This document shows, one piece after another, positions 35,791 to 44,263 of a stretch of DNA of 64,000 nucleotides. The stretch covers positions 3,173,174 through 3,237,173 of the forward strand of contig CP151667.1 in the NCBI GenBank assembly GCA_038400315.1. The letters are read 5' to 3'. Position numbers and translations under genes: made by a program. How positions within the stretch are numbered: the first letter of the stretch is position 1; every line of letters starts with the position of its first letter. This DNA comes from Isosphaeraceae bacterium EP7. Lineage in GTDB: Bacteria; Planctomycetota; Planctomycetia; Isosphaerales; Isosphaeraceae. Below the pieces are notes generated by a model. That model ran no database searches. It was not told the DNA's origin and worked only from the letters and a program-made list of their open reading frames with translations.

Positions 35791-37227
35791 ATGGCGACCG
35801 ATGCACAGGTCGAGGCCGGCGACGAACCCGGTGAAGCTCTCGCAGCCGACGGCGCGACGGTCGAGGCCGGCGACCTCCCGGTCGACGGGCCTCCGATGCC
35901 CGACCCCGAGACGGTCCCTCCGCCCCCCGCCGAGCCGGTGGCGCCGGCCGGCAGGTTGGCCTCGGTGGATGTCCTGCGCGGGGTGGCCCTGCTGGGCATC
36001 CTGGCGATGAACATCGTCGACTTCGCCTGGCCGAATCGCGTCTACAGCAACCCCTACGCCGCGCCCGGCGCGGGGCCCGTCGACGTCGGCTTCTGGATGT
36101 TCAATCACTTTGTGTTCGACACCAAGATGATGACCCTATTCTCCATGCTCTTCGGCGCCGGCCTGGTGCTGATGACCGATCGGGCCGAGGGCCGGGGGGC
36201 CAGGCTGGGGCGGGTCTATTACCGGCGGGTTTCCTGGCTGCTCGTCATCGGCCTGATCCACTCCTACCTCATCTGGGCGGGCGACATCCTGGTGATGTAC
36301 GCCAGTTGCGGGTTCCTGCTCTACCCCTGTCGCCGTTGGAGCCCCAAAACCCTGCTGGTGGTCGGCACGTGCCTGGTCCTCATGGCGGCCCCCCTGGTCG
36401 TCGGGGCCCGGGGCGCCTTCTCTTACATGAAGCGGACGCACGAGAGGGTGCAGGCCGAGACCAAGGCGGGCAAGACGCCGACCAAGTGGGAGAAGCGGGT
36501 CAGCGACGGCTGGGCGAAGACCCTGAAGGGGACGAAGCCGAGCCACGAGCGGTTCCAGAAGGACATCGCCACTCACCGAGGGGGCTACGCCGGGATTGTC
36601 AAGGAGCGGGCCGAAGAGCTCATCTCCTCACAGACCTTCGGCTTCATCTTCGCCGGCTGGTGGCTGGCCGGCGGCCGGATGCTGCTGGGCATGGGCCTGA
36701 TGAAGCTGGGCGTCTTCTCGGGCCTTCGATCCAATCGCTTCTACACATGGATGATGGTCCTCGGCTATGGAATCGGCCTGCCGCTGATGGCGATCGAGAC
36801 CGCGGTGAGCCTGCGGACGGGCTTCTTCGCCGGCCGCCCGCTCGACTACATCACCCAGGGCTGGGTCCTGCTCTACCTGGTGGGGAGCATGCCGGTGGTG
36901 CTGGGCCACGTCGGCCTGGTGATGCTCATCGTCCGCGCAGGGCTGCTCTCGGGGCTGACCCGTCGGCTCGCGGCCGTGGGCCGGATGGCCCTGAGCAACT
37001 ACCTGTTCGACTCGATCCTCTGCACGACCCTCTTCTACGGCTACGGCCTGGGCCTCTACGGCTCCGTCCCCCGCCCCTACCTGATGGGCCTTACCCTCAT
37101 GATCTGGGCCTTCCAGCTCACCTTCAGCCCCGTCTGGCTGGCCCACTTTCGCTACGGCCCCGCCGAGTGGCTCTGGCGCTCGCTGACCTACTGGAAGCCC
37201 CAGCCGATGCGGGCCGTGGCGGGATGA
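35791..37227 (+). CDS. DUF418-type multi-span membrane protein
   Basis: The 478-residue protein begins with about 55 disordered, acidic, Pro-rich residues, then GRLASVDVLRGVALLGILAM and NIVDFAWPNRVYSNP, the classical opening of the DUF418/YeiB family. Around ten hydrophobic segments follow, with TKMMTLFSMLFGAGLVLMTD, SWLLVIGLIHSYLIWAGDIL and RMALSNYLFDSILCTTLFYG as landmarks. The final FSPVWLAHFRYGPAEWLWRS, with LTYWKP close behind, is the conserved family end. The family is related to acyltransferase-like and heparan acetyltransferase membrane proteins, but its substrate is undefined. It is divergent from the ABC operon and ends in a shared terminator. The much longer open frame upstream of 35791 is antisense to the ABC genes. 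Confidence 0.88.
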   Translation: MATDAQVEAGDEPGEALAADGATVEAGDLPVDGPPMPDPETVPPPPAEPVAPAGRLASVDVLRGVALLGILAMNIVDFAWPNRVYSNPYAAPGAGPVDVGFWMFNHFVFDTKMMTLFSMLFGAGLVLMTDRAEGRGARLGRVYYRRVSWLLVIGLIHSYLIWAGDILVMYASCGFLLYPCRRWSPKTLLVVGTCLVLMAAPLVVGARGAFSYMKRTHERVQAETKAGKTPTKWEKRVSDGWAKTLKGTKPSHERFQKDIATHRGGYAGIVKERAEELISSQTFGFIFAGWWLAGGRMLLGMGLMKLGVFSGLRSNRFYTWMMVLGYGIGLPLMAIETAVSLRTGFFAGRPLDYITQGWVLLYLVGSMPVVLGHVGLVMLIVRAGLLSGLTRRLAAVGRMALSNYLFDSILCTTLFYGYGLGLYGSVPRPYLMGLTLMIWAFQLTFSPVWLAHFRYGPAEWLWRSLTYWKPQPMRAVAG

Positions 37228-37276: not shown

Positions 37277-40200
37277 TTATTTCTTGGCGTTGAACTCCAC
37301 CCGGGCCGCCTCGCCCGGCTTGACGGTCACCTTCTCCAGGCTCAGCTTGGGGACGTCTCGCTCGCGTTCGTAGAGGGGCAACAAGGCGACTCCATATTCC
37401 CCAGGGGCCAAGTCACCGAACTCGAAGTCCGTCTGGCCGGGCTGCAACTCCAGGACGGCACCGCCGAGGTCATCGCGAACCATCTCGACGCGGGCGGCCT
37501 CGGGGAAGACCCCGCGATCGACCCTGCCAACCAGACGGCCGGTGGCCGGCATGGTGACTTCGATCGCCTGCTTCCCCTCATCGTTGATGCGTTCCAGATG
37601 CGTGGACCTTCCCCGGCCAAGGCCGGTACGCCACCAGGCCAGCTCGACCTCGGCCTGCTCGGGGACCCCGTCGAATCGGAATCGCCCCGCGTCGTCGGTC
37701 ACCCCTTTCAGGAACAGCTCGATCTCCGGATTGAAGTTGAGGAGGTCATCCACGAGATGTTCCCATTTGATCGGGGGGCGGGCAGGACGCCTCGCATCTC
37801 GCTTGCCCGAGGCGATCAGGCGCAGCTGGACGCCCGAGACGGGCAGACCCGCGGAGTCGAGGATCCGCCCGCCGTAAGATCGCAGGTTGGCCGGATCGAT
37901 CGGGTCGAGGCGGAACGTCGTGGTCGATTTTACGCGTGGATCGGTGGCCACGACCCGGGGTACGATTCGACGCTGGTACCCATCGGCAGAGACGGTGACC
38001 TGGAGCGGCATACCCAGGAAAAGGTGCGAGATCTTGAATTGACCCTGGTCGGACCGGCATGGCTCGCCGAGCCCGACGTTGTGAGTGTGGAGCCTGACCG
38101 ACGGGTCGCCGGATTTCCAGTCGGGCGAGAAGCTGAGGAGCACGTTGAACGCGCGGATGGGTTGGTCCGTCTTCGAGTCGACCACGCGGCCGGAAATCTC
38201 GCCGGCCGGTTTCAACCGGACGGTGACGACCTCGTCCGTGTCGAGCGGGAGCGAATGCTTCTCCAGGAAGGAAAGCTCCATCCCATAAAACGAGAAGACG
38301 CCACCGGCGGAGAGGGAGTCGAGCGAAAACCGGCCCGATTCATCGGTCATCGTGCTCACGCCGTCGAAGGTCCCCAGCAAGTCATGCTCGAATGCGACCC
38401 TCACCTTGGCGATGGGCTGCAACGCGTCATCAACGACGCGACCGCGGATGCGATGGCCGGGGTCGAGGGTCACGGAAACCTCCGCCGGCTTGTCGGGCGG
38501 ACCGGCCTGCACGCTCAGGCGACGGGGTGCGAACCCCTTGGCGGAGACGACGATCTCCTTGCCGAAGTTCCGATCCTGATACAGGTTCTTCATCAGGAAA
38601 CGCCCGTCGGCCCCGGTCTTTGCGTTGCGTACACCGGCATCCCCGCGATTCCTCACGAGGGCCCCTTCAATGGGCAGCCCATCCTTGCTGACGACGGTCC
38701 CGGCGATCGCCCCCCCGTCCGGGGGTGGCGTCAAAGAGACGTCGAGCGTCTGCCGTAGCGACGCGAGGGTGATCGGCGTGACGTTCGTTGCATACGCTCG
38801 CTTTCCGTGGCGCACCACGAAGGCGACGCCAATCGGCAGCTTCTCCAGGCGATAGCGGCCGTCTGTGTCCGACACGGCCCGGGAGAACTCGTAAGAGTCA
38901 TCCGGGGTGATCGCCGTGATCTTGGCTCCCGGGAGCGGGTTGCCCTCGGCGTCGCGTATCTGGCCTTCCAGCGTCGAGGCAGGTCCGAGGAGCACGTCGA
39001 GGTTGGTGACCTCATCCGCGATCAGGGTCACCTTACGCCGCTCGTTGGCGTGGCCATCGGCCGAGATCGAGACCTCGTTCGAGCCCGGCATCAGGCGTTG
39101 GACGAGATATGTGCCGTCGCGGTCGGTGATGGGTGCCTCGGGCCGATCGGCCCAGCCCACGATCACATTCGCCCCCTGGATCGGTTGGCCCGTCGCCTTG
39201 TCCTTCACGCGAACCTTGAGGGACGCCGCCGGGCGGACCAGGATCTCGAGCGGCCCTCCCGACTGTCCGATCGCGGTCAGTTCCACCACGCCATCCTGGC
39301 CGGCCAGGGTGCGTGAGGTCAGCTGACCCAGAGTTGCCCAGACGCAATAGCGACCGAGGGTCAGCCCGTCGAACGCGAAGTTCCCCCTCGCGTCGGCGAC
39401 CTGGCGAAGGGCCGACCCGCCGCCCGGACGATATCGCTCCTCGTCGCGATATTGCCGGATCAGCAGGACCTCGGCCCCCGGCACCGGATCTCCCCCCGCT
39501 TCTTTGACCACGCGGCCCCGGATGCGCCCCACGGCCGGCAGGTGGGCGGGAATGGCCGGAGAAGCGGGCTGGGCTTTCGCGGCGGCCGGTTCGTCGGCCG
39601 CGCGGGTCTCATCGGCCGCGGAGGCTGCCCCTGGGGGCCGGGCGGTCGCGAGGCCGAGGATGAGGAGGGTGGCGACGATCGCCAGGCGCGTTGCTCGGGC
39701 TCGGCTCATTGGCACGTGGCTGCGCGTGCCGTCGAACATGACGTTCATGCGTTGCTCCAGTGTGTTGGGGCGGGCCATCGCGACGAGGGCGGCGGAGCGG
39801 GCGAGGGCCAGGGGGCGGGCCAGGGCGAGGAGTTGGCGGGCGTAGTCCGTGGGCCGCTCTCCGGCCTGGACCACACAGTCGTCGCAGGCGTGCTCGCATT
39901 CCAGGCGCATCCGATGCAGGGCGTGCCATGCGAGGGGGTGGAACCAGAACAGGGACGTCGTCAGCCGACCGATGAGCTGCCAGGCGACGTCGAGGCGCCG
40001 GATGTGGGCCAGCTCGTGGCGCAGCACCAGGCGGCGGGCCTCGGACGACCAGTTGGTGGCCTCGGCCGGCAGGAGGATGACCGGGAGAAACACGCCCCAG
40101 GTCAGGGCGATCGGCGAGTCGCCCGACTGACGCAGGTCGACGGGACGGCGGATTCCCGAGGCTCGCCTCAGGTCGTCCAGCAGCGAGATCCAGGATTGAT

Positions 40201-40747
40201 CCCGCACGACCGAAGATCGGCGGCGACGCTGAAAATTCGCGGTCAGGCCGAGGAGTGTCGGGATGGCCGAGGCCATCGCTCCAACGGCCCAGAGGGCGAG
40301 CACGACGGAGGCGCGTGTCCAACTCGGAGGGGGATCGATGGCGGCGGGCCCCTCGGTGCGAGCGAACTGAGGGCTTGTTGCGGGCTCGGGGCGGGCCTCC
40401 ATGGCATCCATGATGAGAGGACGGTCGTCCCTGATGGGAGGGCGGTCGTCGGCACGGATGGTCGTCTCCTCACGCGTGGGCTCGTCGGTTTCGACCCGGA
40501 GCGGTTCCGGTGCGAACGAAAACGCGGGGATCGCCGGCAAGTTCCAGCCGGGAACGGACCAGGTGACGACCGGCAGGGCGACCAGGCCGGCGAGGGTGAA
40601 TGCCCAGATCCGATGGCGGAGCGCGGCCGAAGATCGGCGTGCGAACACGATGACGAGGTTGGCCAGCAGCAGCAGGATCGTCGCCCTGAGGGCCGCGTCC
40701 ACCAGGAGCGGCGTGAAGGAGACGGCGAGTGCGAATTCCAGGCGCAT
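37277..40747 (-). CDS. BlaR-like M56 membrane metallopeptidase with many carboxypeptidase-regulatory-like domains
   Basis: The 1156-residue protein has N-terminal membrane helices (LVDAALRATILLLLANLVIV, IWAFTLAGLVALPVVTWSVP, then one near 145-165). The M56 zinc peptidase carries HELAH at 244-248 and WFHPLAWHALHRMRLECEHA, ending in CDDCV. A further membrane helix is at about 355-375. The rest is extracytoplasmic and contains about seven carboxypeptidase-regulatory-like beta-sandwiches, each with GRV- or GTVV-type starts (IRGRVVKEAGGDPVPGAEVL, LEGQIRDAEGNPLPGAKITA, IAGTVVSKDGLPIEGALVRN). In BlaR1 the sensor is a penicillin-binding domain; here these beta-sandwiches replace it. By analogy it cleaves or inactivates the BlaI-type repressor encoded one base upstream. 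The ligand is unknown. Confidence 0.9.
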   Translation of the reverse strand: MRLEFALAVSFTPLLVDAALRATILLLLANLVIVFARRSSAALRHRIWAFTLAGLVALPVVTWSVPGWNLPAIPAFSFAPEPLRVETDEPTREETTIRADDRPPIRDDRPLIMDAMEARPEPATSPQFARTEGPAAIDPPPSWTRASVVLALWAVGAMASAIPTLLGLTANFQRRRRSSVVRDQSWISLLDDLRRASGIRRPVDLRQSGDSPIALTWGVFLPVILLPAEATNWSSEARRLVLRHELAHIRRLDVAWQLIGRLTTSLFWFHPLAWHALHRMRLECEHACDDCVVQAGERPTDYARQLLALARPLALARSAALVAMARPNTLEQRMNVMFDGTRSHVPMSRARATRLAIVATLLILGLATARPPGAASAADETRAADEPAAAKAQPASPAIPAHLPAVGRIRGRVVKEAGGDPVPGAEVLLIRQYRDEERYRPGGGSALRQVADARGNFAFDGLTLGRYCVWATLGQLTSRTLAGQDGVVELTAIGQSGGPLEILVRPAASLKVRVKDKATGQPIQGANVIVGWADRPEAPITDRDGTYLVQRLMPGSNEVSISADGHANERRKVTLIADEVTNLDVLLGPASTLEGQIRDAEGNPLPGAKITAITPDDSYEFSRAVSDTDGRYRLEKLPIGVAFVVRHGKRAYATNVTPITLASLRQTLDVSLTPPPDGGAIAGTVVSKDGLPIEGALVRNRGDAGVRNAKTGADGRFLMKNLYQDRNFGKEIVVSAKGFAPRRLSVQAGPPDKPAEVSVTLDPGHRIRGRVVDDALQPIAKVRVAFEHDLLGTFDGVSTMTDESGRFSLDSLSAGGVFSFYGMELSFLEKHSLPLDTDEVVTVRLKPAGEISGRVVDSKTDQPIRAFNVLLSFSPDWKSGDPSVRLHTHNVGLGEPCRSDQGQFKISHLFLGMPLQVTVSADGYQRRIVPRVVATDPRVKSTTTFRLDPIDPANLRSYGGRILDSAGLPVSGVQLRLIASGKRDARRPARPPIKWEHLVDDLLNFNPEIELFLKGVTDDAGRFRFDGVPEQAEVELAWWRTGLGRGRSTHLERINDEGKQAIEVTMPATGRLVGRVDRGVFPEAARVEMVRDDLGGAVLELQPGQTDFEFGDLAPGEYGVALLPLYERERDVPKLSLEKVTVKPGEAARVEFNAKK

Positions 40748-40748
40748 G

Positions 40749-41141
40749 CTATTTCCCCTCCCGGCGGGCCTGCTGGATGAGCTGCTCCAGACGCTCGATG
40801 TCGTCGTTGCTCAGATTGGCGACGGACGGGTGCAGGATCGCCTCGACGGTGGCGGCGGCCGAGCCGGCGAAGAAGGTCTGCATCAGGTGCCTGAGGGCCG
40901 ATTGCTTCGCCGCGTCGCGCGAGTGGACCGCGCGGTAGACATATTTGGTGCCCACCTGATGATGCTGGAGCAGGCCCTTGGCCTCAAGCGACCGGATCAT
41001 CGTCCGCACGGCCGAGTACGACGGCGGGTCGGCCAGGTCGGCCAGCACGTCGGCCACCGAGGCCTCTCTCAGCTTGTAGACCGAATCCATGATCTGCCGC
41101 TCGCGGGCACCAAGGCCCGCCTGGTATTGCTGCCTTGCCAT
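40749..41141 (-). CDS. blaI: BlaI/MecI-family transcriptional repressor
   Basis: The 130-residue protein is a winged-helix repressor: GLGARERQIMDSVYKLREAS, VADVLADLADPPSYSAVRTM and IRSLEAKGLLQHHQVGTKYV form the DNA-binding domain, and SALRHLMQTFFAGSAAATVE with DDIERLEQLIQQARREGK the dimerisation tail. PSYSAVRTMIRSLE is the recognition helix. I chose ATG 41141 because family members start close to QYQAGLGARE; the longer frame runs into the promoter. The stop is one base from the M56 gene, forming the usual repressor-sensor operon. A promoter with overlapping inverted repeats lies upstream, suggesting autoregulation. Confidence 0.92.
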   Translation of the reverse strand: MARQQYQAGLGARERQIMDSVYKLREASVADVLADLADPPSYSAVRTMIRSLEAKGLLQHHQVGTKYVYRAVHSRDAAKQSALRHLMQTFFAGSAAATVEAILHPSVANLSNDDIERLEQLIQQARREGK

Positions 41142-41196
41142 GCGTCCGCTCGCGGGTGACCGGGGATGGGCCGCCGGGCGACATGCCTGGCATCCC

Positions 41197-41237
41197 ATTG
41201 CCACTGGCAGTGTATTGCCACAAATCAGTCGAGTCAA
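41197..41237 (-). promoter_or_regulatory. Promoter and probable BlaI operator
   Basis: On the minus strand TTGACT (41237-41232) and TACACT (41214-41209) are spaced by exactly 17 bases. The -10 box is overlapped by CACTG-G-CAGTG (41202-41212) and TGCCA-C-TGGCA (41199-41209), two interleaved inverted repeats. ATTGCCAC occurs twice (41197-41204 and 41214-41221). Transcription would start near 41202, about 60 bases before the blaI start. This is an ideal arrangement for repression by the BlaI dimer. Confidence 0.65.
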
Positions 41238-41335: not shown

Positions 41336-42244
41336 ATGAAGGCGTTTTATTGCGACGAGTTCGTCATCGAGCTGCCGCCGACGCATCGGTTCCCGATGAT
41401 CAAGTACGCCATGCTCCGGCGGCGGATCGTGGAGGCCGGATTGGTGCCTGAGGGCTCGTTGTTGGTGCCACACGCCGCGACCGACGTGGAGCTTTGCCGC
41501 GCGCACGCCCCGGACTACGTCAGGCGCGTCGCGGGGGGCTTGCAGACCGAGGCCGAGGTCCGGGAGATGGGCTTCCCCTGGTCGCGCTCGCTGGTCGAGC
41601 GGTCGAGGCGGTCCAGCGGTGCGACGATCGAGGCGGCACGCGCGGCGTTTGAGGACGGGGTGGCGGTGAATCTGGCCGGCGGCACTCATCACGCACACGC
41701 CGACAAGGCGGCCGGCTACTGCATCTTCAATGACTCGGCCGTGGCCGCGCGGGCGATGCAGGCCGAGGGGCGGGCCAGGCGCGTGGTGGTGATCGACACC
41801 GACGTCCACCAGGGGGACGGCACCGCCTCGATCCTGGCCGGCGACCCGACCGTCTTCACCTTCTCGATCCACGGGGCCAAGAATTACCCCATGCGCAAGC
41901 AGCCCAGCGACCTCGACGTGAATCTGCCCGACGGCACCGACGACGGTGCCTATCTCGATGCGCTGGAGCGTGGCGTCCGCCGGGCGATCGACCGCTCGAG
42001 GGCCGATCTGGCCATCATGCTGGCCGGCGCCGACCCGTTCGAGGGGGACACTCTGGGCCGGTTGAAGGTGACCAAGGCGGGGCTTGCCGCGCGCGACCGG
42101 ATCGTGCTCGACCACTGCCGTGCCGCCGGCCTGCCGGTGGCCATCTCGATGGCCGGGGGCTACGCGAAGCACGTCGAGGACACCGTCGACATCCACTACC
42201 AGACCGTGCAGGCCGCCGCCGGCCTGGCGGCGTCGTTCCGCTGA
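41336..42244 (+). CDS. Histone deacetylase-family zinc amidohydrolase
   Basis: The 302-residue protein belongs to the bacterial HDAC/acetoin-utilisation superfamily, zinc enzymes that remove acyl groups from amines such as acetyl-polyamines or acetyl-lysine. The catalytic His pair is in GGTHHAHADKAAGYCIFND (H118, H119). The metal ligands are D156 and H158 in VIDTDVHQGDGTA and D233 in LAGADPFEGD. The N-terminus (YCDEFVIELPPTHRFPMIKY) matches the short single-domain class. In place of the usual catalytic Tyr motif GGY, AGGYAKHVEDTVDIH provides Tyr at the C-terminus. The start MKAFYC at 41336 follows a purine-rich stretch. Substrate unknown. Confidence 0.9.
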   Translation: MKAFYCDEFVIELPPTHRFPMIKYAMLRRRIVEAGLVPEGSLLVPHAATDVELCRAHAPDYVRRVAGGLQTEAEVREMGFPWSRSLVERSRRSSGATIEAARAAFEDGVAVNLAGGTHHAHADKAAGYCIFNDSAVAARAMQAEGRARRVVVIDTDVHQGDGTASILAGDPTVFTFSIHGAKNYPMRKQPSDLDVNLPDGTDDGAYLDALERGVRRAIDRSRADLAIMLAGADPFEGDTLGRLKVTKAGLAARDRIVLDHCRAAGLPVAISMAGGYAKHVEDTVDIHYQTVQAAAGLAASFR

Positions 42245-42415: not shown

Positions 42416-44263
42416 ATGCTTCCATCGAACATCGTGCGATGTTTCGCCGCAGCCCTCTGCGTGGCCCTGGCTGCTCTCTCGGCGCCCGCCGCCCAGGCCG
42501 CCGATCGGCCGTCCACGGCTCGCGGGCTCGATGGCAAGGACGTGGCGCTGACCGCCCCGAAGGGGGGCGCCGCCGTGCTCATCTTCTATTCGACGGAGTG
42601 CCCGATCTCCAACGCCTACAGCCCGGCGTTGAAGGCCTTGCGGGGCGACTATCTGGCGGACAGGCTGACCATGGTCGGCGTCTGCGTCGACCCCGACCTA
42701 TCTGACCGCGCGGTGGCGACCCACAAGGCGGAGTACGGCCTGGAATTCCCCGTCGTGCGCGACCGCCGTGGCACCCTGGCCAGGTCCTTCGGCGCCAGTG
42801 TCACGCCCGAGGTGGCGGTTCTCGACCAGGCCGGCGAGGTCCGCTACCTGGGGCGGATCGACGATCAGTATGCCGCCCGCCTCAAGCGGAACGCGAATTC
42901 GACGTCGCACGAGCTGCGCGACGCCGTGGCCGCGTTGACGACGGGCAAGCCCGTCGCCGTGGCCCTGACCAAGGCGGTCGGCTGCCCGCTGCCGGTCCCG
43001 GCGGCCAGGCCGGAGCAGGCCCCGACCTACGCGGGCGAGGTGGTCTCCATCCTCCAGGCGCATTGCCAGGAATGCCACCGGCCGGGGCAGGTCGGGCCGT
43101 TCCCGCTGCTGACGTACGAGCAGGCCCGCAAGCGTGCCGATGACCTGGCCTCGGTGGCGGAGGACCGGCGGATGCCCCCCTGGAAGCCGCTGGCGGGCGC
43201 CGGAATCCCGTTCGCGCACGACAAGTCGATGTCCGAGGCCGAGATCGCCATGCTCGTCGCCTGGGCCGGCGCTGGGGCCCCCGAGGGAGACCCGTCGAAG
43301 GCGCCCGCCCCGCGGGCGTTCCCAGAAGGGTGGGCGCTGGGCACGCCCGACCTCGTCGTGGACATCGGCACCGACTTCGAGGTGCCCGCCTCGGGCGACG
43401 ACATCTACCGCTGCTTCGTGATCCCCACGAACTTGCCCGAGAAGGTGGCCGTGTCGGCCGTCGAGTACCGGCCCGGCAACGCGTCGGTGGTGCATCACGT
43501 GCTGGGCTACGTCGACACCAGGGGGGACGCCCGCAAGAAGGACGAGGCCGAGGCCGGCCCCGGCTACACCTGCTTCGGCGGCCCCGGGTTCGCCGCCGTG
43601 AGCGACATGGGGGGGTGGGCGCCCGGCAATGAGCCGCGCTATCTGCCCGAGGGGGTCGGCCGGTTCCTGCCGAGCGGGGCCGACCTCGTCGTGCAGGTGC
43701 ACTATCACCCGTCGGGCAAGCGCGAGGTGGACCGGACGAGGATCGGGCTCTACTTCGCCAAGACGCCCATCAGGCAGACGCTCGTCTCGGCGATGGCGGC
43801 CGACCCGGAGCACCTGGAGCTGCCCGCGGGCGACGCGAACATCGCCGCGAAGGCGATTTGGAAGGTGCCGGTCGACGTCGATGCGTACTCGGTGACGCCC
43901 CACATGCACATGAGGGGGCGTGACATCTCCATGGCGGCGATCCTGCCCGACGGCACGCGCAAGCCCCTGATCCGGATCGACGACTGGGACTTCAACTGGC
44001 AGAACTCGTACCTGTTCCGCGAGCCCCTGTTCCTGCCCGCCGGCACGGTCGTCGAGGTCGAAGGGCACTTCGACAACTCGGCGGCCAACCCCCGCAACCC
44101 GATCAAGCCGCCGGTGAAGGTGCACTGGGGCGAGGGGACGCACGACGAGATGTTCATCGGCTTCATCTCGGTGGCCAAGCACGGCCAGGACCTGACCCGA
44201 CCGGGCGAGCAGGACGACCTGGGGAAGATCCTCCGCGACCAGCGGAAGCCGCCCGGCCGCTAG
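42416..44263 (+). CDS. Redoxin - heme c - copper monooxygenase-like fusion protein
   Basis: The 615-residue exported protein has a signal peptide (CFAAALCVALAALSAPAAQA). Residues about 35-175 form a thioredoxin-like redoxin domain (VLIFYSTECPISNAYSPALK, FPVVRDRRGTLARSFGASVT, PEVAVLDQAGEVRYLGRID) with one N-terminal Cys in TECP and no CxxC. At about 217-221 CQECH binds heme c (ILQAHCQECHRPGQVGPFPL). From about 300 it resembles the copper type II ascorbate-dependent monooxygenase fold: VVHHVLGYVD, VVQVHYHPSG and HMHMRG near 496 supply the His ligands. Such fusions are common in planctomycetes, usually without biochemical assignment. A stem-loop terminator follows. Confidence 0.85.
   Translation: MLPSNIVRCFAAALCVALAALSAPAAQAADRPSTARGLDGKDVALTAPKGGAAVLIFYSTECPISNAYSPALKALRGDYLADRLTMVGVCVDPDLSDRAVATHKAEYGLEFPVVRDRRGTLARSFGASVTPEVAVLDQAGEVRYLGRIDDQYAARLKRNANSTSHELRDAVAALTTGKPVAVALTKAVGCPLPVPAARPEQAPTYAGEVVSILQAHCQECHRPGQVGPFPLLTYEQARKRADDLASVAEDRRMPPWKPLAGAGIPFAHDKSMSEAEIAMLVAWAGAGAPEGDPSKAPAPRAFPEGWALGTPDLVVDIGTDFEVPASGDDIYRCFVIPTNLPEKVAVSAVEYRPGNASVVHHVLGYVDTRGDARKKDEAEAGPGYTCFGGPGFAAVSDMGGWAPGNEPRYLPEGVGRFLPSGADLVVQVHYHPSGKREVDRTRIGLYFAKTPIRQTLVSAMAADPEHLELPAGDANIAAKAIWKVPVDVDAYSVTPHMHMRGRDISMAAILPDGTRKPLIRIDDWDFNWQNSYLFREPLFLPAGTVVEVEGHFDNSAANPRNPIKPPVKVHWGEGTHDEMFIGFISVAKHGQDLTRPGEQDDLGKILRDQRKPPGR

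What the first reader, a model, noticed from the sequence alone, without database searches (positions are those of the whole stretch)
37277..41237. BlaI repressor with M56 sensor whose outer part is a chain of regulatory-like beta-sandwiches
The beta-lactam sensor of BlaR1 is replaced by about 750 residues of carboxypeptidase-regulatory-like domains. The promoter is overlapped by two interleaved inverted repeats and an ATTGCCAC direct repeat. It looks like a proteolytic signalling switch for an unknown, perhaps polymeric, ligand.
Basis: partly seen in the sequence, partly recalled or inferred. Interest (0 to 1): 0.5.

Follow-up and report, generated by a model that had tools for sequence, protein, structure and literature searches.

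The report
Self-regulating BlaI switch with M56 receptor
A planctomycete bacterium carries a two-gene switch like the one that turns on penicillin resistance in staphylococci, but its outer part is a chain of small sandwich-shaped domains instead of a penicillin sensor, and the only clear copy of the repressor's DNA site found in the genome is in front of the switch itself.

Summary
The finding is real and can be sharpened. BlaI (40749-41141, minus; ATG at 41141, not the TTG at 41237) lies one base before an M56 protein (37277-40747) with BlaR1's fold (Z 19.6), zinc motifs and likely topology, and a 784-residue tail, mostly beta, of about eight transthyretin/CarboxypepD_reg sandwiches. The operator is best read as two tandem 16-bp dyads, TGGCAATACACTGCCA and TGGCAATGGGATGCCA, the first on the -10 box of a TTGACT-N17-TACACT promoter; the same layout stands before many BlaI relatives in Planctomycetota, and with TGCTA/TAGCA arms before more distant ones, Acidobacteriota and Gemmatimonadota included. 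In the 7.2-Mb genome the only exact sites, and the only model hits, are this promoter, so the pair looks like a self-regulating switch without a clear regulon; single degenerate sites cannot be excluded. The design is common: 5 of 10 full-length M56 proteins in this genome have such tails, and 42 of 45 family genomes have M56. The nearly invariant Phe102 at BlaI's known cut site is Ile here, so cleavage of BlaI is inferred, not shown. Ligand unknown. New variant of the BlaR1-BlaI kind.

The parts
40749..41141 (-). BlaI/MecI/CopY-family repressor, 130 aa, start ATG 41139-41141
   Evidence: Pfam PF03965 E 2.6e-28; weak hits to solved BlaI/MecI chains, best E 0.0075
37277..40747 (-). M56 membrane metalloprotease with beta-sandwich tail, 1156 aa
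   Evidence: Pfam PF05569 E 1.1e-32 and PF13620 E 6.3e-61; structural match to BlaR1 Z 19.6
39713..40321 (-). M56 membrane/protease core, residues 143-345
   Evidence: H244 E245 H248 D253 E285 D289 Y302 R333 invariant in the window and 10 relatives; profile hit to BlaR1 8exs E 4.3e-7
40004..40018 (-). HELAH zinc motif, residues 244-248
40322..40546 (-). Pro-rich outer loop between TM2 and TM3 (position of BlaR1 EL1), residues 68-142, mostly predicted disordered
   Evidence: pLDDT under 50 at 71-102 and 104-142; position from hydropathy
37280..39631 (-). linker and outer chain of about eight TTR/CarboxypepD_reg-like beta sandwiches, residues 373-1156
   Evidence: the number eight is my own count from the strand list
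41232..41237 (-). -35 box TTGACT
   Evidence: TTGAC also present in 20 of 20 hand-chosen relatives
41209..41214 (-). -10 box TACACT, inside dyad 1
41205..41220 (-). operator dyad 1 TGGCAATACACTGCCA
41188..41203 (-). operator dyad 2 TGGCAATGGGATGCCA

Best explanation
A BlaR1-BlaI-type proteolytic switch that controls its own operon. BlaI dimers sit on two tandem 16-bp dyads (TGGCA-N6-TGCCA), the first on the -10 box, and shut the blaI-M56 promoter (site conservation shown; binding inferred). The M56 protein sits in the inner membrane with N and C ends outside and its zinc protease facing the cytoplasm (inferred from sequence and fold). Its outer chain of TTR-like sandwiches, with the disordered loop between TM2 and TM3, takes the place of the penicillin sensor and BlaR1's EL1 loop. 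Binding of an envelope or extracellular macromolecule to the chain, or strain on it, would open the protease; BlaI would be cut and the operon derepressed, making more receptor (inferred). Because no other clear site of this kind was found in the genome, the receptor itself would be the main product of the switch here; in some relatives DUF1800-DUF1501 or DUF362 genes follow on the same strand and could be the output.
For: Adjacent pair, one base apart. The adjacency recurs: an M56 reading directly after BlaI in 71 of 80 named loci; 5 of the 9 misses have under 500 bp of DNA after BlaI, the other four have 1.9-6.5 kb and are true misses by that test. Catalytic set H244/E245/H248, D253, E285xxxD289, Y302 invariant in 11 sequences, matching BlaR1 residues given in PMC9834060 (passages). 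BlaR1 match Z 19.6, 245 residues, 3.4 A; profile E 4.3e-7. Positive residues at the loops that should be inside. Tandem dyads: >=11 of 14 pairs in 47 of 81 upstream regions, 3.0 expected; arm spacing 6 in 84 of 85 same-class pairs; TTGAC and 17-bp spacing conserved. Two exact sites in 7.2 Mb, both here; model R1 hits only this place at E <= 10.
Against: BlaI residue 102, almost invariant Phe at the known cut site (PMC9834060), is Ile here, with Ala101 for Asn. BlaR1's autocleavage Phe284 has no clear counterpart (residue 323 is Ala by count). Hydropathy also passes three stretches outside the four that I call TM (2-20, 213-231, 306-324). 34 of 81 upstream regions do not reach 11 pairs, and a few that do (such as L170, L182, L191) are by eye not of the TGxxA type. 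The site searches could miss single dyads. No ligand evidence.
Confidence: 0.66

Rival explanations
1. BlaI is a plain autorepressor; the M56 protease acts on another substrate, and the pair only shares an operon.
For: Ile instead of the almost invariant Phe at the BlaI cut site (PMC9834060 passages).
Against: Adjacency in 71 of 80 loci; A101 and I102 invariant in the 11-member ortholog alignment, which would fit a shifted specificity of a paired protease.
Confidence: 0.15
2. The tail is the effector, not a sensor: an envelope scaffold or adhesin whose amount is tuned by BlaI and M56.
For: The pair's own promoter is the only clear site in this genome; fold matches include pilins, adhesins and an S-layer protein.
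Against: Different tails on the same core and repressor family (HEAT, TPR, TonB_C, WD40-type, LRR) suit swappable input domains; BlaR1 precedent.
Confidence: 0.17
3. BlaI heads a wider regulon through single or degenerate dyads, or also controls the divergent histone-deacetylase gene (likely ATG 41336).
For: 22 one-mismatch single sites lie elsewhere in the genome; the tool's control, the pattern read backwards, has 5 matches against 25 in all, though it differs in base order. By a rough gene of the 22 are intergenic and at least 3 more (L090, L093, L097) lie within about 50 bp of a reading's start; that same gene call puts the window's own operator inside a reading, so 'inside' counts for little. 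The model search scored only 150 of 850 first-look candidates. The deacetylase start is 115 bp from dyad 1, and a deacetylase relative lies on the blaI strand upstream of blaI in 2 of 97 loci searched, L163 and L122.
Against: No second tandem site at E <= 10; in 44 other family genomes and 8 further genomes all model hits at E <= 1e-3 lie at blaI genes; the deacetylase was not found near blaI in 95 of 97 loci, some of them short or repeated.
Confidence: 0.24

Closest known systems
BlaR1-BlaI / MecR1-MecI of Staphylococcus and Bacillus
   Same: Repressor plus M56 membrane protease; HExxH...ExxxD set and fold; N-out C-out topology as read from sequence; control of the pair's own operon (the last as inferred here; for the staphylococcal pair as I recall it).
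   Different: No penicillin-binding sensor but a chain of TTR-like sandwiches; different half-site (TGGCA, not TACA); no gene follows in the operon; Ile not Phe at the known BlaI cut position.
CopY/CopR operator RNYKACANNYGTMRNY
   Same: 16-bp dyad around a 2-base centre, two such regions in E. hirae (PMC7253601, abstract and passages).
   Different: Other arm bases; no C-terminal CxC metal motif in this BlaI (seen in the sequence).
CarboxypepD_reg / transthyretin-like domains (carboxypeptidase D, NTE domain of SusC transporters)
   Same: Fold: residues 509-590 match duck carboxypeptidase D Z 14.4, 79 residues, 1.3 A.
   Different: Here about eight in a row after an M56 protease.

Membership tests
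BlaI/MecI/CopY repressors (PF03965) | full-length winged-helix plus dimer domain above Pfam cut-off | tested here: met
   99.1 bits against 22.6, profile 1-115 of 115
BlaI/MecI/CopY repressors (PF03965) | Asn101-Phe102 cut site of BlaI | tested here: not met
   Ala101-Ile102 by alignment with MecI, invariant in the 11-member ortholog alignment
BlaI/MecI/CopY repressors (PF03965) | TACA/TGTA operator of the studied members | tested here: not met
   arms are TGGCA/TGCCA; the 16-bp length and 2-base centre agree with the CopY consensus
Peptidase M56 (BlaR1 type) | HExxH and ExxxD zinc motifs with Asp at HExxH+9 | tested here: met
   H244-H248, D253, E285-D289 invariant in 11
Peptidase M56 (BlaR1 type) | BlaR1 membrane-protease fold | tested here: met
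   Z 19.6, 245 aligned, model 11-331
Peptidase M56 (BlaR1 type) | proteolytic activity on BlaI | not testable with these tools
   needs co-expression
BlaR1/MecR1 beta-lactam sensors proper | C-terminal penicillin-binding sensor domain | tested here: not met
   no such Pfam family in the protein at E <= 0.1; NCBIfam blaR1_generic 72.7 bits against a cut-off of 400, residues 147-323 only
BlaR1/MecR1 beta-lactam sensors proper | Ser283-Phe284 autocleavage loop | tested here: inconclusive
   residue ten before R333 is Ala323; register uncertain, the structural match ends at 331 against 294

The most novel reading that the evidence does not exclude
M56-BlaI pairs form a large class of insulated receptor-protease switches: one receptor core with interchangeable outer domains (TTR chains, HEAT, TPR, WD40-type propellers, LRR, thioredoxin, TonB_C), each read out by its own BlaI at one private pair of dyads, so that the product is mainly more receptor: a self-amplifying, possibly bistable, surface-sensing state. 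The BlaI recognition helix and its half-site change together, keeping parallel copies in one cell from cross-talking.
Probability: 0.28. Interest if true: 0.7.

Novelty: new variant of a known kind. Interest (0 to 1): 0.47.

Why it matters
BlaR1-BlaI is known mainly as a resistance switch. Here the same core, present up to 22 times per genome in this family, is joined to outer chains that do not resemble penicillin sensors. The operator is defined to the base and is the only clear copy in its genome, so gel shift, reporter and ligand screens are direct. If the private-switch reading holds, it would be a general bacterial receptor design.

Tried and rejected
My first spacing guess of 17 was wrong as a rule: a scan of 5 gaps x 21 spacings puts gap 2, spacing 18 on top; the window has 17.

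A regulon: searched by pattern, by where the one-mismatch sites lie and by a sequence-only model of promoter plus operator; none was found, with the limits told under the third rival. In one search two genomes have a second strong site, each just upstream of a second BlaI (handles matched by contig and coordinates). G315 and G398 in that call are one genome.

A recognition code: BlaI residue 47 is T in 25 of 25 loci with TGGCA/TGTCA/TGTTA dyads and A or G in 34 of 34 with TGCTA; 22 of 81 had no exact dyad and were left out. With 13 more BlaIs (68 of 94 scored, 26 unscored), T goes with GGC, GGT, GTC or GTT, also with Arg50 in three of these, so neither position alone fixes the site, and on a tree residue 47 changes only 3 times, with 1 independent pair on well-supported branches. 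It is a lead, not a test.

The search for related loci with the M56 protein found nothing. Foldseek ranks a Bacillus surface protein, macroglobulins and pilins first, with poor superposition over the whole chain; rows were used instead. I first thought that no deacetylase lies near other blaI genes; a search found two of 97. Papers: the listings showed me no paper on M56 with CarboxypepD_reg tails or on this operator; one search listed 20 of 1,051 and 20 of 139, and the library lacks most subscription journals.

Full report
What is there. On the minus strand, BlaI (40749-41141) and an M56 protein (37277-40747) follow each other with one base between stop and start. BlaI matches Penicillinase_R over its full profile (99.1 bits). 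I take ATG 41141 as its start, because the promoter and operator lie inside the longer TTG reading to 41237. The M56 protein has Pfam M56 at 135-335 and CarboxypepD_reg at E 6.3e-61. A reading on the other strand ends at 37227, so no same-strand gene follows closely; a histone-deacetylase-type gene (Pfam E 9e-57) diverges, its likely ATG at 41336.

The protease. A profile of 11 M56 regions finds only BlaR1 chains among solved structures at E <= 0.1, best E 4.3e-7. In those 11, H244, E245, H248, D253, E285, D289, Y302 and R333 are invariant. These correspond to BlaR1 HExxH at 201, Asp210, E242xxxD246, Tyr261 and, less surely, Arg294; the BlaR1 residues are from passages of PMC9834060. The match for Y302 and R333 is by position, not by residue-level superposition. 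Hydropathy peaks that I take as TM helices are 18-36, 47-65, 148-166 and 350-368; peaks at 2-20, 213-231 and 306-324 also pass the threshold and I take them as the start of TM1 and as core parts. Residues 37-48 hold 4 K/R and no D/E, and 170-354 hold 28 K/R and 17 D/E, which fits N and C ends outside and the protease inside. The AlphaFold2 model (22 sequences, mean pLDDT 77.1, pTM 0.40) aligns to BlaR1 over 11-331, Z 19.6, 245 residues, 3.4 A. The low pTM means that the placing of the domains relative to each other is not to be trusted.

The outer chain. Residues 373-405 are a low-confidence linker; 406-1152 are almost all strands and loops, about eight sandwiches by my count of the strand list. 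Residues 509-590 match the TTR-like domain of carboxypeptidase D (Z 14.4, 79 residues, 1.3 A), and NTE domains of SusC-type transporters appear at 763-852 and 511-590. Most of the TM2-TM3 loop, the place of BlaR1's EL1, has pLDDT under 50. Among three orthologs the sandwich 677-763 is the most conserved outer part, mean identity 0.49 against 0.54 for 143-345; three sequences are few.

The operator. In 80 named loci found with an 11-member BlaI alignment (the best 80 of 447) plus the window, two tandem dyads with spacing 17-19 reach 11 or more of 14 pairs in 47 of 81 upstream regions, 3.0 expected from 50 first-order resamplings of the same regions; 12 or more in 25, 0.36 expected. The scan did not presuppose the bases; a few of the hits are by eye chance pairs of another kind (L170, L182, L191). 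In 20 loci chosen by hand for clean TGGCA dyads, out of 31 with Thr47, TTGAC stands before the site in 20 of 20; the hexamer spacing, with the -10 fixed at six bases into dyad 1, is 17 in 15, 18 in 4 and 20 in 1; the window has TTGACT-N17-TACACT. The alignment of 19 of these with the window has the consensus GTGGCAATACATTGCCACnTGGCAATnGATTGCCAC after TTGAC. Of the 49 loci with Ala or Gly at position 47, from Acidobacteriota, Gemmatimonadota, some Planctomycetota and others, 34 have an exact TGCTA-N6-TAGCA dyad and 15 no exact dyad of the four kinds tested.

No clear regulon. TGGCAATNNNNTGCCA occurs exactly twice in 7.2 Mb, both here. There are 22 one-mismatch sites elsewhere; with the three matches here that is 25, against 5 for the tool's control, the pattern read backwards, which has another base order. 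By a rough gene of the 22 fall in readings and 2 between genes, but the same call also puts the window's own operator inside a reading (the TTG form of blaI), and at least three others lie within about 50 bp of a reading's start, so this counts for little. The model of promoter plus operator hits only this place at E <= 10, once on each strand; it scored 150 of 850 first-look candidates. Among 45 family genomes, hits at E <= 1e-3 occur in six, G000, G008, G014, G028, G030 and G032, each upstream of the blaI ortholog seen; the best hit at another place has E 0.039 (stricter filters above 40 genomes can lose weak sites). In nine handles (eight distinct genomes) hits at E <= 1e-3 again lie at blaI genes, including two second BlaIs.

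How common. This genome has 11 M56 and 11 BlaI Pfam hits; of the 10 full-length M56 proteins five have CarboxypepD_reg (the window's, L025, L026, L027, L031), the rest do not at E <= 0.001. M56 is found in 42 of 45 family genomes, up to 22 per genome. Relatives of the whole M56 protein at E <= 1e-60 are in 7 of these 45, the window's included. BlaI relatives at E <= 1e-20 are in 73 of 397 class genomes. Of the 71 M56 readings next to the 80 BlaIs, CarboxypepD_reg is in 21 of 29 with Thr47 BlaIs and 5 of 42 of the others, which show HEAT (6), TonB_C (5) and TPR (3) among the 25 families listed of 106; some readings are cut by contig ends. DUF1800 and DUF1501 genes follow in 3 of 15 Thr47 loci with a complete M56 and more than 2.5 kb downstream and in 0 of 37 others, and in L106 and L108, outside that count; a DUF362 gene follows in L074 (Pfam), the same genome as L119, and a close relative of it in L075. 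DUF1501 proteins carry a twin-arginine motif and DUF1800-DUF1501 pairs are predicted operons of unknown function (PMC5122149, passages). A relative of the window's deacetylase lies upstream of blaI, on the same strand and not divergent, in L163 (57% identity) and L122 (37%), 2 of 97 loci searched, a set with repeats.

How it most likely works. By analogy with BlaR1, BlaI shuts the promoter by sitting on the -10 box; an outside signal felt by the sandwich chain opens the protease; BlaI is cut; the pair is made in larger amount. Shown: gene order, predicted fold, catalytic residues, conservation of the site and that no second clear site was found. Inferred: binding, cleavage, direction of control, topology, ligand. 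Against the cleavage step: Ala101-Ile102 in place of Asn-Phe, while the BlaR1 paper calls that Phe almost invariant in BlaI.

Novelty. Same kind as BlaR1-BlaI, with another sensor, another operator type, no gene attached here and no clear regulon. I saw no paper on it in the listings, which cover open-licence PMC papers only and of which two were capped.

Noticed in passing
L027:5953-9984 (own genome): An M56 paralog with CarboxypepD_reg domains and a C-terminal AhpC/TSA thioredoxin-type domain on one chain, 1343 aa, next to its own BlaI.
   Followed up: partly
L032:6227-6493 (own genome, contig C2, 70 kb): A short M56 reading of 88 aa on a small contig, with no BlaI hit on that contig.
   Followed up: no
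L023:5361-7223 with upstream region (own genome): Another BlaI-M56 pair whose upstream DNA carries GCGTTCA-TT-TGAACGC, which suggests a different operator of its own.
   Followed up: no
L117:6895-7806 (Paludisphaera soli): The M56 reading next to a 72% identical BlaI ends after 304 aa: a frame break in the gene or the assembly.
   Followed up: no
L106, L108, L113 (L113 is the genome of L131), L125, L129: BlaI-M56 followed by DUF1800 and DUF1501 genes on the same strand, a possible output operon.
   Followed up: partly
L163:4049-4939, L122:227-1072: Relatives of the window's divergent histone-deacetylase-type gene upstream of blaI on the same strand in two other loci.
   Followed up: partly
window 42416-44263: A 615-aa protein with a redoxin/AhpC-TSA part and a weak cytochrome-type stretch downstream of the deacetylase gene.
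   Followed up: no
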